Below, piece by piece: positions 8,537 to 11,681 of a DNA stretch of 36,655 nt. The stretch covers positions 1 to 36,655 of the forward strand of contig JAUYFS010000033.1 of NCBI GenBank assembly GCA_030689665.1, written 5' to 3'. Position numbers and translations under genes: made by a program. This DNA comes from a bacterium (GTDB lineage: Bacteria > Patescibacteriota > Minisyncoccia > Minisyncoccales > JAUYFS01). The notes under the pieces are model-generated. The model was not told the origin of the DNA, made no database searches, and saw nothing but the letters and a program-made list of their open reading frames with translations. Numbering within the stretch: the stretch's first letter is position 1; every line of letters begins with the position of its first letter.

Positions 8537-9013
8537 ATGAAAATTATTGATGAAAAGTTTGAAAAAGTAAAACAAATAGCCAAATTAGATTATAACAAAA
8601 TTAAAAAAGTAAAATGTCCTTTTTTGCAGGATTATGTTTATTTTAATAAAGATGGTTTTGACCACTTATTATTTAAAACTTGGAACAGAAGCAGGTCTCA
8701 ATTAGAACAATACTCAAGACTAAGGCTTTTATCTCTAGTTCCTGAAATTATCGCTAAATCACATACTTTACAAGAATATGATGAACGAAAAATTTTTGTA
8801 AGACAAAAAATTAATTCTCGTTGGGAGCAAAGAATGAAAATGGTTCGTTATTATGTTTTTGTTGCAGTTGTTAAGACCGTAAGATTAAAAATAATCGTTA
8901 AAGAAATTGAGGGCGGCGAGAAGTTTTTCTATAGCTTGTATCCCTCTTGGAAAAAAGACAAAAAAGACCCCAAAAAGAAAATATTTTATTCTGGTAATCT
9001 AGAAGAGGATTAA
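8537..9013 (+). CDS. Hypothetical protein, possibly a barnase/EndoU/RelE-like (PBECR-type) nuclease fold
   Basis: YVYFNKDGFDHLLFK...LRLLSLVPEII... and KIIVKEIEGGEKFFYSLYPSW resemble phage-associated PBECR-type domains from memory; not confirmed. Confidence 0.4.
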   Translation: MKIIDEKFEKVKQIAKLDYNKIKKVKCPFLQDYVYFNKDGFDHLLFKTWNRSRSQLEQYSRLRLLSLVPEIIAKSHTLQEYDERKIFVRQKINSRWEQRMKMVRYYVFVAVVKTVRLKIIVKEIEGGEKFFYSLYPSWKKDKKDPKKKIFYSGNLEED

Positions 9014-9015
9014 AT

Positions 9016-9077
9016 AAAAAAGCACCCGTCTGCAGTTTATGTATTGACCGCGGGAGGGCCAAAGCCCTCACAGGTGC
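9016..9077 (-). ncRNA. Candidate stand-alone small RNA, three-way junction plus U6 terminator
   Basis: Minus strand GCACCUGU GAGGGC-UUUG-GCCCUC CC GCGGU-CAAUACAUAA-ACUGC AG ACGGGUGC UUUUUU; all three helices pair completely (two G-U wobbles). Confidence 0.6.
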
Positions 9078-9083
9078 ATTATT

Positions 9084-9112
9084 AAAATAACAAAATTTTA
9101 TATAGGTGTCAA
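9084..9112 (-). promoter_or_regulatory. Promoter of the candidate minus-strand small RNA
   Basis: Minus strand TTGACA (9107-9112), 17 bp spacer, TATTTT (9084-9089), 6 nt discriminator to G9077, the first base of the RNA stem. Confidence 0.55.
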
Positions 9113-9156
9113 TGGCTACCTGTGGAAAATTAAAATCATTTTTAATATCTTAAAAC

Positions 9157-9185
9157 TTGCCCAAAATCGTTCTCTGAGATAAAAT
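9157..9185 (+). promoter_or_regulatory. Sigma70-type promoter for the 2-oxoacid oxidoreductase operon
   Basis: TTGCCC, 17 bp spacer, TAAAAT. Confidence 0.5.
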
Positions 9186-9210
9186 AAAATATTACTTCAT
9201 TTTTTAGTTT

Positions 9211-10890
9211 ATGAAAGATTTTTCTTTTTTAATCGGCGGAAAAGCTGGCGACGGAATCAAACAAGCCGGGCATTTTTTAGCCCAGCTCTTTAATGAATTG
9301 GGATATAATATTTTTATTTACGAGGATTATCAGTCGCTGATAACTGGCGGACACAATTTTTCAATTGTCAGGGCCAGCGACAAAAGAATTTTAAGCCACA
9401 AGCAAAAAGTTGATTTTGCCATTGTTTTTAATAAAGACACCCTGGAAAAAAATCAGGAAAATTTCAAAAAAGAGACAATTATAATTTATGATTCTGATGT
9501 TATCCAAAGCAATGATTTGCCGAAAAAATACAAGGCAGTCGCTTTTCCAATGTCCAATGTTTTAAAAGAAAGCAATTTGCCGCTGATAGTGAGAAACGCG
9601 GTTTCTCTGGGAATTTTAGCAGGGATTTTGAAAATAGATTTTGAATTGGTTAAAAAAATCATTGAAAATTCAGTTCATAAAAAAATAGAAGAAAACATAA
9701 AAGTGGCTGAAATCGGATATAAAGAAGGTCTTGAACATAAAAACGGATTTGAAATTGAAAAACTCAAAAACGAACCTAGAAAAATTTTAACAGGCAATGA
9801 AGCAATTGCGCTTGGCGCGGTGCGGGCAGGAATGAAATTTTATTTTGCTTATCCAATGACGCCAGCTTCAGGCATTTTGCATTTTTTGGCTGCTAATGAA
9901 GATAAATTCGGAGTTAAAGCCATTCATCCTGAAAACGAAATCGCGGTTGCTTTAATGGCAGAAGGAGCGGCAACAGCAGGAAAAAGAGCAATGGTTGGCA
10001 CGTCGGGCGGAGGTTTCGCGCTAATGGTTGAAGCGCTAAGTTTGGCAGGCCAGGCGGAAATTCCAATTGTTTTTGTTTTGTCCCAAAGGCCAGGACCTGC
10101 GACCGGAATTCCGACTTACACTTCGCAGGCAGACCTTTTGTTTTCTTTATTTGCGGGCCACGGAGAATTCCTGAAAATTGTCGTTGCTCCTGGCGATGTT
10201 GACGAGGCAATGTTTTTAACGGCAATGGCAATGAATTTATCTTGGAAATACCAAACGCCAGCAATTATTTTAAGCGATAAACACCTAAGCGAAAGCGTTT
10301 TCAGCGCTTATTATGATGAAAATAAAATAAAAATAGAGCAGCCAAAATTATGGAGCGGCAAAGGAGATTATAAAAGATATTCTGACGAAAAAGACGGAAT
10401 TTCTTCCTTAGCTTTTTTGGGCGACAAAAACGCGATTGTGAAAGCGACAAGCTATGAACACAATGAATTCGGAATCACAACAGAAAACTCCGAAGAAGCC
10501 AAAAAAATGGCTGAAAAAAGATTAAGAAAAAAAATAACGCTGCTCAAAGAATTAAAAGGCGAAAAAACAATAAATGTTTTGGGAAACAAGAAAAGCAAAA
10601 ATGTTTTAATTGTCTGGGGTTCAACAAAAGGAGCTGCTGTTGAAGCGGCGGAAAACTTGGGAATCAAAGTTATCCAGCCAATGTTTATTGAGCCGTTTCC
10701 GGCTGATGAAATTAAAAAAGAATTAAAAGGAGCGAAAAAAATCATTGATATTGAAACAAACGCCACAGGGCAAATGGCATATATTCTTAAAGCCAACGGA
10801 ATTGAGGTTGATGAAAAGATTTTAAAATATGACGGCAGGCCGTTTATAATTGAAAAGCTGGAAGAAAAAATTAAAAAAATAATAAAATGA
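9211..10890 (+). CDS. korA: 2-oxoacid:acceptor oxidoreductase, fused gamma-alpha subunit
   Basis: N-terminal gamma domain GGKAGDGIKQAGHFLA...SLITGGHNFSIVR; alpha domain GNEAIALGAVRAGMKFYFAYPMTPASGI...GTSGGGFALMVEALSLAG. Confidence 0.9.
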   Translation: MKDFSFLIGGKAGDGIKQAGHFLAQLFNELGYNIFIYEDYQSLITGGHNFSIVRASDKRILSHKQKVDFAIVFNKDTLEKNQENFKKETIIIYDSDVIQSNDLPKKYKAVAFPMSNVLKESNLPLIVRNAVSLGILAGILKIDFELVKKIIENSVHKKIEENIKVAEIGYKEGLEHKNGFEIEKLKNEPRKILTGNEAIALGAVRAGMKFYFAYPMTPASGILHFLAANEDKFGVKAIHPENEIAVALMAEGAATAGKRAMVGTSGGGFALMVEALSLAGQAEIPIVFVLSQRPGPATGIPTYTSQADLLFSLFAGHGEFLKIVVAPGDVDEAMFLTAMAMNLSWKYQTPAIILSDKHLSESVFSAYYDENKIKIEQPKLWSGKGDYKRYSDEKDGISSLAFLGDKNAIVKATSYEHNEFGITTENSEEAKKMAEKRLRKKITLLKELKGEKTINVLGNKKSKNVLIVWGSTKGAAVEAAENLGIKVIQPMFIEPFPADEIKKELKGAKKIIDIETNATGQMAYILKANGIEVDEKILKYDGRPFIIEKLEEKIKKIIK

Positions 10891-11681
10891 GCAGGGAAAT
10901 GGATACAAAAATTGAAAAAACCTGGTGTCCGGGATGCGCTAATTTTACAATTGAAGCTGTTTTCAAAAATACTCTTTTGGAATTGGAAAAAGAGGGTTTG
11001 GATTTAAGCAAGGTTGTTGTTTTGAGCGGAATCGGCTGCCACGGGAAAATTTCCGATTATTTGAATTTAAGCAGTTTTTATTCTTTGCACGGAAGGGCAA
11101 TTCCTGTTGCGGAAGGAATAAAACTGGCAAACAAAGATTTAATTCCCATTGTTTTTGTCGGCGATGGCGATGCTTATGGAGAGGGTTTGGAACACTTGAT
11201 TTTTGCCGCTAAAAGAAATACCAATATAAATGTTTTTGTTCATAACAACAGAGTTTACGGACTGACAACAGGACAATTTGCGCCAACTTCGCCGGAAAAA
11301 TTCAAAGGAAGGTCAACTCCCAAGGGTTCTGTTGAAGAGCCGCTCAACCCGATTGAATTGATGCTGGCAAGCAAGGCGAGTTTTGTGGCGCGGGGCTATA
11401 CCGGCAAAGCGGAGCATTTGAAAGATTTGATGAAACAAGCCCTGCATCACAGGGGATTTAGTTTTATTGACATACTCCAGCCCTGTTTGGCTTATTTTGA
11501 CAGCCGGGATTTTTACGGAAAAAATGTTTATGAAATGGAAGCTCAAGATGTTTCTAATTTTAATTCAGCTATGGCAAAAGCATTGGAGTGGGATTATAAT
11601 AACGGGGGCAAAATTCCGGTCGGGGTTTTTTACAACCAAAAAAAATTAACTTTTGAAGAAAAAATATGTTTGACAAACTAA
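10887..11681 (+). CDS. korB: 2-oxoacid:ferredoxin oxidoreductase beta subunit (TPP-binding)
   Basis: WCPGCANF, GIGCHGK, GDGDAYGEGLEHLIFAAKRNTNINVFVHNNRVYGLTTGQ; overlaps korA by ATGA. Confidence 0.92.
   Translation: MSREMDTKIEKTWCPGCANFTIEAVFKNTLLELEKEGLDLSKVVVLSGIGCHGKISDYLNLSSFYSLHGRAIPVAEGIKLANKDLIPIVFVGDGDAYGEGLEHLIFAAKRNTNINVFVHNNRVYGLTTGQFAPTSPEKFKGRSTPKGSVEEPLNPIELMLASKASFVARGYTGKAEHLKDLMKQALHHRGFSFIDILQPCLAYFDSRDFYGKNVYEMEAQDVSNFNSAMAKALEWDYNNGGKIPVGVFYNQKKLTFEEKICLTN

What the first reader, a model, noticed from the sequence alone, without database searches (positions are those of the whole stretch)
9016..9112. Candidate stand-alone minus-strand small RNA with a three-way junction
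Between two + strand genes the minus strand carries TTGACA, 17 bp, TATTTT, 6 nt, then GCACCUGUGAGGGCUUUGGCCCUCCCGCGGUCAAUACAUAAACUGCAGACGGGUGC followed by UUUUUU. It folds into P1 GCACCUGU/ACGGGUGC (8 bp), P2 GAGGGC-UUUG-GCCCUC (6 bp), P3 GCGGU-CAAUACAUAA-ACUGC (5 bp), with junctions of 0, CC and AG. P1 plus U6 acts as terminator. The predicted +1 coincides with the first base of P1. It has no downstream gene on its strand, so it looks like an independent sRNA, not a riboswitch. The 10 nt loop CAAUACAUAA is a possible interaction site.
Basis: partly seen in the sequence, partly recalled or inferred. Interest (0 to 1): 0.72.

Follow-up and report, generated by a model that had tools for sequence, protein, structure and literature searches.

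The report
New three-way-junction RNA paired with nuclease-like gene
A small bacterial RNA, confirmed by dozens of relatives with matching structure-preserving mutations, sits tail-to-tail beside a predicted RNA-cutting toxin gene across the tiny-genomed Patescibacteria, and most likely acts as that protein's RNA antitoxin, a pairing not in the RNA family database.

Summary
The minus-strand RNA (9022-9077, then U6) is one member of a conserved RNA class absent from Rfam. I found 65 copies in Patescibacteria genomes with a covariance model. All three helices covary: 97% of pair cells are paired, with 193 two-sided changes against about 51 in shuffles and at most 35 when slid. 60 of 65 copies have a sigma-70-like promoter, usually ending 5-6 nt before P1, so the RNA is its own transcription unit. 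It is not free-standing in function. It lies convergently downstream of one protein family (here ORF 8537-9013, distantly LPD3-like, with invariant Gly40/His43 and near-invariant Arg53/Ser133). Protein searches found the RNA 7-56 nt past the stop codon in 17 of 17 named loci. RNAs without the gene exist (13 of 65), and some sit beside broken gene copies. No intact gene with enough flank lacked such an RNA. The best reading is a two-part toxin/RNA-antitoxin-like module, analogous to the convergent DUF3800 gene/RNA pairs and to AbiF/RCd22. Nuclease activity and neutralisation are inferred; there is no expression data. The 10-nt loop as an antisense site is not supported.

The parts
9016..9077 (-). 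Structured small RNA (56 nt plus U6): three-way junction, member of a new RNA class (model R1)
   Evidence: Fold; R1 match 57.0 bits; covariation over 65 homologues. The window RNA is itself in the R1 seed, so its own score is not independent.
9107..9112 (-). -35 element TTGACA of the RNA promoter
   Evidence: conserved in homologues
9084..9089 (-). -10 element TATTTT, 17-nt spacer, 6 nt before the first base of P1
   Evidence: 60 of 65 loci have >=9/12 match and 49 of those 60 end 5-6 nt before the model start
9070..9077 (-). P1 5' strand GCACCUGU
   Evidence: all 9 modelled P1 pairs show two-sided changes among homologues
9054..9069 (-). P2 hairpin GAGGGC-UUUG-GCCCUC
   Evidence: all 4 modelled P2 pairs show two-sided changes
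9032..9051 (-). P3 hairpin GCGGU-CAAUACAUAA-ACUGC (loop variable in length and middle sequence)
   Evidence: 3 of 5 modelled P3 pairs show two-sided changes; loop listing
9022..9029 (-). P1 3' strand ACGGGUGC
9016..9021 (-). U6 tract directly after P1 (terminator of this copy; not conserved in this form)
   Evidence: most homologues use a separate hairpin
8537..9013 (+). Convergent partner gene, 158 aa, distant LPD3-like family, predicted nuclease toxin (invariant G40, H43; near-invariant P28, R53, V119, F131, S133)
   Evidence: Homologues adjacent to the RNA in 52 of 65 RNA loci and in 17/17 loci found by protein; Pfam LPD3 weak; AF2 model pLDDT 91; Foldseek to phage LPD3 domains

Best explanation
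A two-component module: a small convergent gene (8537-9013) encodes a predicted LPD3/BECR-like endoribonuclease toxin, and the 3' neighbour on the opposite strand encodes a roughly 60-nt three-way-junction RNA with its own constitutive-type promoter. The RNA most likely folds as drawn, binds the protein directly and blocks it, as an RNA antitoxin (type III-like in mechanism, but encoded tail-to-tail and as a single unrepeated RNA). Loss or titration of the RNA, for example when a phage shuts off host transcription, would free the nuclease and stop growth. Shown here by sequence: the RNA class, its strand, structure and promoter, its linkage with the gene, and gene-less RNAs. Inferred: that the protein is a nuclease and toxic, that the RNA binds it and neutralises it, and any phage or stress role.
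For: RNA structure under selection: covariation 0/500 shuffles and far above slid controls. Own transcription unit: promoter at fixed distance in 60/65, against 8.4% of shuffled sequences scoring >=9/12. Linkage: 17/17 loci found by protein alone carry the RNA 7-56 nt past the stop codon; 10 of these contigs were not in the model seed. Co-occurrence by genome Fisher p = 4e-23 (order) and 8e-30 (phylum). Asymmetry expected of an antitoxin: 13 of 65 RNAs have no such gene beside them, others sit beside copies with in-frame stops or deletions (L062, L049; L139, L141), and one locus carries two RNAs of different subtypes in tandem with no such gene (L134). Every full-length gene with enough flank had an R1 RNA or a larger three-way-junction variant. 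No third conserved gene. Protein: invariant His in a helix, near-invariant Ser in the last strand of a four-strand sheet, the BECR active-site layout described in PMC5512222. Precedents: DUF3800-V and -IX RNAs lie convergently 2-38 nt from DUF3800 genes in these same genomes; abiF RNA RCd22 neutralises the AbiF toxin by direct binding (PMC12373285).
Against: No expression or toxicity data. No solved-structure match for the protein; the BECR assignment rests on residue layout only, and LPD3 itself is a domain of unknown function (PMC5512222). Type III antitoxins described so far are upstream of and on the same strand as the toxin (own knowledge). RNAs without the gene could instead serve another, unrecognised partner.
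Confidence: 0.62

Rival explanations
1. The RNA is a cofactor or guide of the protein: a small ribonucleoprotein nuclease (as Cas13 relatives are) in which the RNA is needed for activity rather than for inhibition.
For: Tight co-occurrence, strong structural constraint. DUF3800, the other nuclease-like family with convergent RNAs, has been found with Cas12a2 systems and an RNase H fold (PMC10910872).
Against: RNAs persist without the protein or beside broken copies, odd for a mere cofactor. No variable guide-like segment except the short P3 loop, which is often only a few nt.
Confidence: 0.15
2. Type I-like antisense control: the convergent RNA overlaps and regulates the 3' end or translation of the + gene mRNA.
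For: Tail-to-tail orientation with a gap of 7-56 nt, so transcripts could overlap if termination is leaky.
Against: Covariation of all three helices on one strand is not needed for antisense pairing. Cognate RNA/mRNA-start duplexes are not clearly better than non-cognate ones (mean fractional rank 0.43). Most loci have a terminator between the two.
Confidence: 0.1
3. An independent trans-acting sRNA that regulates other mRNAs through its loop; the neighbour gene is incidental.
For: Own promoter and terminator; 13 copies lack the gene.
Against: 52 of 65 copies are beside the gene and 17/17 gene loci carry the RNA. Loop length and sequence vary.
Confidence: 0.06
4. Only a terminator or 3' stem-loop of the + strand gene.
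For: Lies 8 nt past the stop codon at 9013.
Against: Pairs are G-U on the minus strand where they would be A-C on the plus strand (122 against 9). Promoter conserved upstream on the minus strand. No T-run follows on the + strand. Gene-less copies exist.
Confidence: 0.01

Closest known systems
DUF3800 RNA motifs (Rfam DUF3800-II RF02961, -V RF02964, -IX RF02968) with DUF3800 genes
   Same: Small structured RNA on the opposite strand immediately downstream of a nuclease-like gene; DUF3800-IX folds as a small three-way junction too; present in the same phylum.
   Different: Different protein family (RNase H-like DUF3800 against LPD3/BECR-like). The window RNA does not reach the gathering score of any Rfam family. 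R1 does not find DUF3800 RNAs above noise.
AbiF / abiF RNA (RF03085), RCd22-AbiFCd (PMC12373285)
   Same: Predicted RNase toxin with a small structured RNA next to its gene; there shown to neutralise the toxin by direct binding, in cis and trans.
   Different: HEPN toxin; the RNA lies upstream and is co-transcribed with the gene; different RNA structure and length.
Type III toxin-antitoxin systems (ToxIN, CptIN, TenpIN)
   Same: Proposed logic: an RNA that binds and inhibits an endoribonuclease.
   Different: Own knowledge: type III antitoxins are tandem repeats upstream of the toxin in one operon with pseudoknotted units. Here a single non-repeated three-way junction, convergent, and an unrelated toxin family.
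LPD3 domain of phage/conjugative polyvalent proteins (PF18798)
   Same: Best Pfam match (15 of 52 members, best E 3.6e-7); Foldseek probability 0.97-0.99 to phage LPD3 domains.
   Different: Here a stand-alone ~135-165 aa chromosomal protein with an RNA partner. The window protein is below Pfam's cut-off (20.1 against 27 bits).

Membership tests
Any Rfam 15 family | Covariance-model score at or above gathering | tested here: not met
   None in the window; permissive search of 8950-9250 gives only chance-level scores, best 18.1 bits, E 0.71; the homologous RNAs in the further loci scanned are not matched either
DUF3800-type gene/convergent RNA module | RNA convergent and immediately downstream of its protein gene | tested here: met
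   Gap 8 nt in the window; 7-56 nt in 17 loci
DUF3800-type gene/convergent RNA module | Partner protein is DUF3800 (PF12686) | tested here: not met
   No DUF3800 in the window's genome; partner is weakly LPD3
Type III toxin-antitoxin | Antitoxin RNA in tandem repeats upstream of the toxin on the same strand | tested here: not met
   RNA is downstream, opposite strand, single copy
Type III toxin-antitoxin | RNA binds and inhibits the toxin protein | not testable with these tools
   Needs biochemistry; asymmetry of gene-less RNAs is only suggestive
BECR-fold endoribonuclease | Helix-borne catalytic His and S/T in strand 4 of the sheet | tested here: met
   H43 invariant in helix 38-45, S133 near-invariant in strand 129-136 (layout per PMC5512222); residue layout only, geometry not measured
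BECR-fold endoribonuclease | Structural match to a solved BECR protein | tested here: inconclusive
   No PDB match at E <= 0.001 for two good models
LPD3 (PF18798) | Pfam score above cut-off | tested here: not met
   Window protein 20.1 of 27 bits; L072 23.3 of 27 bits
Type I toxin-antitoxin | Antisense pairing with the toxin mRNA | tested here: inconclusive
   Only the mRNA start was tested: no clear cognate preference

The most novel reading that the evidence does not exclude
A phylum-wide toxin/antitoxin class of Patescibacteria in which a single convergent three-way-junction RNA is the direct antitoxin of an LPD3-type nuclease, kept in some genomes as gene-less protective RNAs (one a tandem pair of two subtypes); together with the DUF3800 pairs this would define a general 'tail-to-tail RNA antitoxin' design used by unrelated nucleases.
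Probability: 0.45. Interest if true: 0.85.

Novelty: new variant of a known kind. Interest (0 to 1): 0.72.

Why it matters
It gives a function-testable home to a structured RNA class and to a protein family of unknown function in organisms that can hardly be cultured. It suggests that the orphan DUF3800 RNA motifs of Rfam and this class share one design, in which a nuclease gene and its RNA are encoded tail-to-tail. If the RNA is the antitoxin, RNA-based toxin control is much more varied than the described type III systems, and the gene-less RNA copies would be natural anti-toxin RNAs.

Tried and rejected
Rfam at gathering and permissive thresholds: nothing for this RNA. A RAGATH-17 hit on the + strand at 17.4 bits (E 9.5) is chance. 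Exact-pattern scans of viral and genome collections: none. Of the DNA-search hits in relatives that I inspected, only L006 was a homologue; L007, L008, L002, L003 and L019 looked like chance. I first took the DUF3800-II hit in L080 as the partner RNA of the LPD3-like gene; it belongs to a separate DUF3800 gene beside it, so that link was dropped (an early notebook entry still says otherwise; a later one corrects it). The frameshifted neighbour of the gene-less RNA in L102 looks DUF3800-like by eye but was not confirmed. Three protein profiles from subgroups found no viral relatives and tblastn found none in phages or plasmids, so mobility on known phages or plasmids is unsupported. Antisense model tested and not supported. 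Profile comparison of the family with the PBECR3-like protein of L135 gave nothing.

Full report
WHAT IS THERE. The RNA folds into P1 (8 bp), P2 (6 bp, UUUG) and P3 (5 bp, 10-nt loop) at -27.9 kcal/mol, z -3.34. The stop codon of the + strand ORF 8537-9013 lies 8 nt from the last base of P1. The only minus-strand ORF nearby, 8898-9071, overlaps the RNA and looks spurious. No Rfam family matches. The window is contig 15 of a 455-kb genome; the named relatives found later are Parcubacteria-type MAGs, so this is most likely a Patescibacteria (CPR) genome.

FROM ONE SEQUENCE TO A FAMILY. The RNA is single-copy in its genome. A DNA search of 60 relatives gave one real homologue, L006: the same junction with changed but complementary P1 and P3, TTGACA upstream, and a homologue of ORF 8537-9013 beside it, 53% identical. 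Searching with that protein found homologues in 21 of 247 genomes of the order and 30 of 382 of the phylum. The opposite-strand flank just past the stop codon of nearly all of them folds into the same kind of three-way junction.

COVARIATION. On 49 aligned RNAs, 97.1% of pair cells are standard pairs, with 132 two-sided changes against 36 in shuffles (0/500) and at most 23 in slid controls. A covariance model (R1) built from them was then run on whole genomes without reference to the gene: it found RNAs in 26 of 246 genomes of the order and 33 of 382 of the phylum; many of these are the seed loci, others are new. On the 65 RNAs aligned by R1, 97.0% are paired, 16 of 18 pairs have two-sided changes, and there are 193 such cells against 51.5. 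That alignment leans towards the structure it was fitted to; one search was made on a MAFFT alignment. G-U pairs outnumber A-C mismatches 122 to 9, which fixes the minus strand as the functional RNA.

TRANSCRIPTION. In 60 of 65 loci a TTGACA/TATAAT pair matches at >=9 of 12, with the -10 ending 5-6 nt before the model start in 49 of those 60; 8.4% of shuffled upstream sequences reach 9. So P1 begins at the predicted +1. A run of five T lies within 50 nt 3' of P1 in 54 of 65, but a T4 directly after P1 in only 8. Most relatives have a separate hairpin between the RNA and the ORF, which by position could terminate both.

LINKAGE WITH THE PROTEIN. Of 65 RNA loci, 52 have the gene convergent and adjacent, counting degenerate copies; 13 do not. 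Conversely, a scan of 85,462 species genomes with a close protein alignment gave 17 loci, and all 17 carry the RNA 7-56 nt from the stop codon; seven of these contigs overlap the model seed and ten do not. Genome-level co-occurrence: 20 both, 1 protein only, 6 RNA only in the order (p 4e-23); 26, 4 and 7 in the phylum (p 8e-30). The protein-only cases are a stop-containing fragment (G132), a contig end (G490), two RNAs missed by filters (L064, L065; found with filters off) and one of three loci with a larger three-way-junction variant (L080; also L044 and L051). Flanking genes otherwise differ from locus to locus; no third component recurs.

GENE-LESS AND BROKEN CASES. RNAs with no LPD3-like gene beside them include L083, one of the strongest matches. 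RNAs beside genes with in-frame stops (L062, L049) or deletions (L139, L141) also occur. L134 carries two RNAs of different subtypes head-to-tail. In L135 a PBECR3-like protein (E 5e-4) follows the RNA on the same strand. RNA kept while the gene decays is what a protective RNA predicts; it does not prove it.

THE PROTEIN. It is a 120-172 aa family; G40 and H43 are invariant, P28, R53, V119, F131 and S133 near-invariant in 52 members. Pfam LPD3 matches 15 of 52 members (best 3.6e-7) and the window protein below the cut-off. The AF2 model (pLDDT 91) ends in a helix followed by a four-strand sheet, with H43 in a preceding helix and S133 in the last strand. Foldseek gives no PDB match and phage LPD3 domains at probability 0.97-0.99. 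PMC5512222 describes BECR RNases as having a helix-borne His and an S/T in strand 4. The nuclease reading is therefore reasoned, not demonstrated.

MECHANISM. Most likely a toxin held by an RNA antitoxin. Shown: RNA class, strand, promoter, structure, gene pairing, gene-less copies. Inferred: nuclease activity, toxicity, direct binding, biological role. The antisense alternative was tested against the mRNA start and not supported. The loop as an mRNA-targeting site is unlikely because it varies widely in length and its centre is not conserved.

COMPARISON WITH WHAT IS KNOWN. In the same genomes DUF3800 genes have Rfam DUF3800-V or -IX RNAs convergent 2-38 nt past the stop codon, -IX also folding as a three-way junction. 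DUF3800 has an RNase H fold and was earlier linked to ncRNAs (PMC10910872). AbiF/RCd22 is the tested precedent for an RNA that neutralises such a protein by direct binding (PMC12373285). Searches of open-access papers found no description of this pair; subscription papers were not searchable. I therefore file it as a new variant of a known kind.

Noticed in passing
L134:1446-1559: Two RNAs of the class, of different subtypes, lie head-to-tail behind what appears to be one promoter, with no LPD3-like gene: a gene-less RNA pair.
   Followed up: partly
L150, L147 (DUF3800-IX); L151, L152, L156, L157 (DUF3800-V): Known Rfam DUF3800 RNAs are convergent with DUF3800 genes, 2-38 nt past the stop codon, in the same Patescibacteria genomes: the same layout as the window module.
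   Followed up: partly
L080 (whole locus): Two such modules side by side: DUF3800 gene with DUF3800-II RNA, then an LPD3-like gene with a larger three-way-junction RNA.
   Followed up: partly
L044, L051, L080 (3' of the LPD3-like gene): A larger three-way-junction RNA variant (GCCGCU...AGCGGGAGA) not detected by R1; in L051 it overlaps the end of the ORF.
   Followed up: partly
L135:1501-2113: RNA of the class followed on the same strand by a terminator and a PBECR3-like ORF (E 5e-4): an upstream arrangement as in type III systems.
   Followed up: partly
L106:894-1322 and L083 (RNA-oriented coordinates 1177-1413): RNAs without an LPD3-like gene are convergent with other small ORFs (L106 ending KRYLMSCFPEE, L083 resembling the PBECR3-like ORF of L135 by eye), each preceded by a related small Cys-rich ORF; possibly other nuclease partners.
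   Followed up: no
window 9211-11681: Adjacent genes encode both parts of a 2-oxoacid:ferredoxin oxidoreductase (POR, POR_N, TPP and PFO beta domains) in a 455-kb genome.
   Followed up: no
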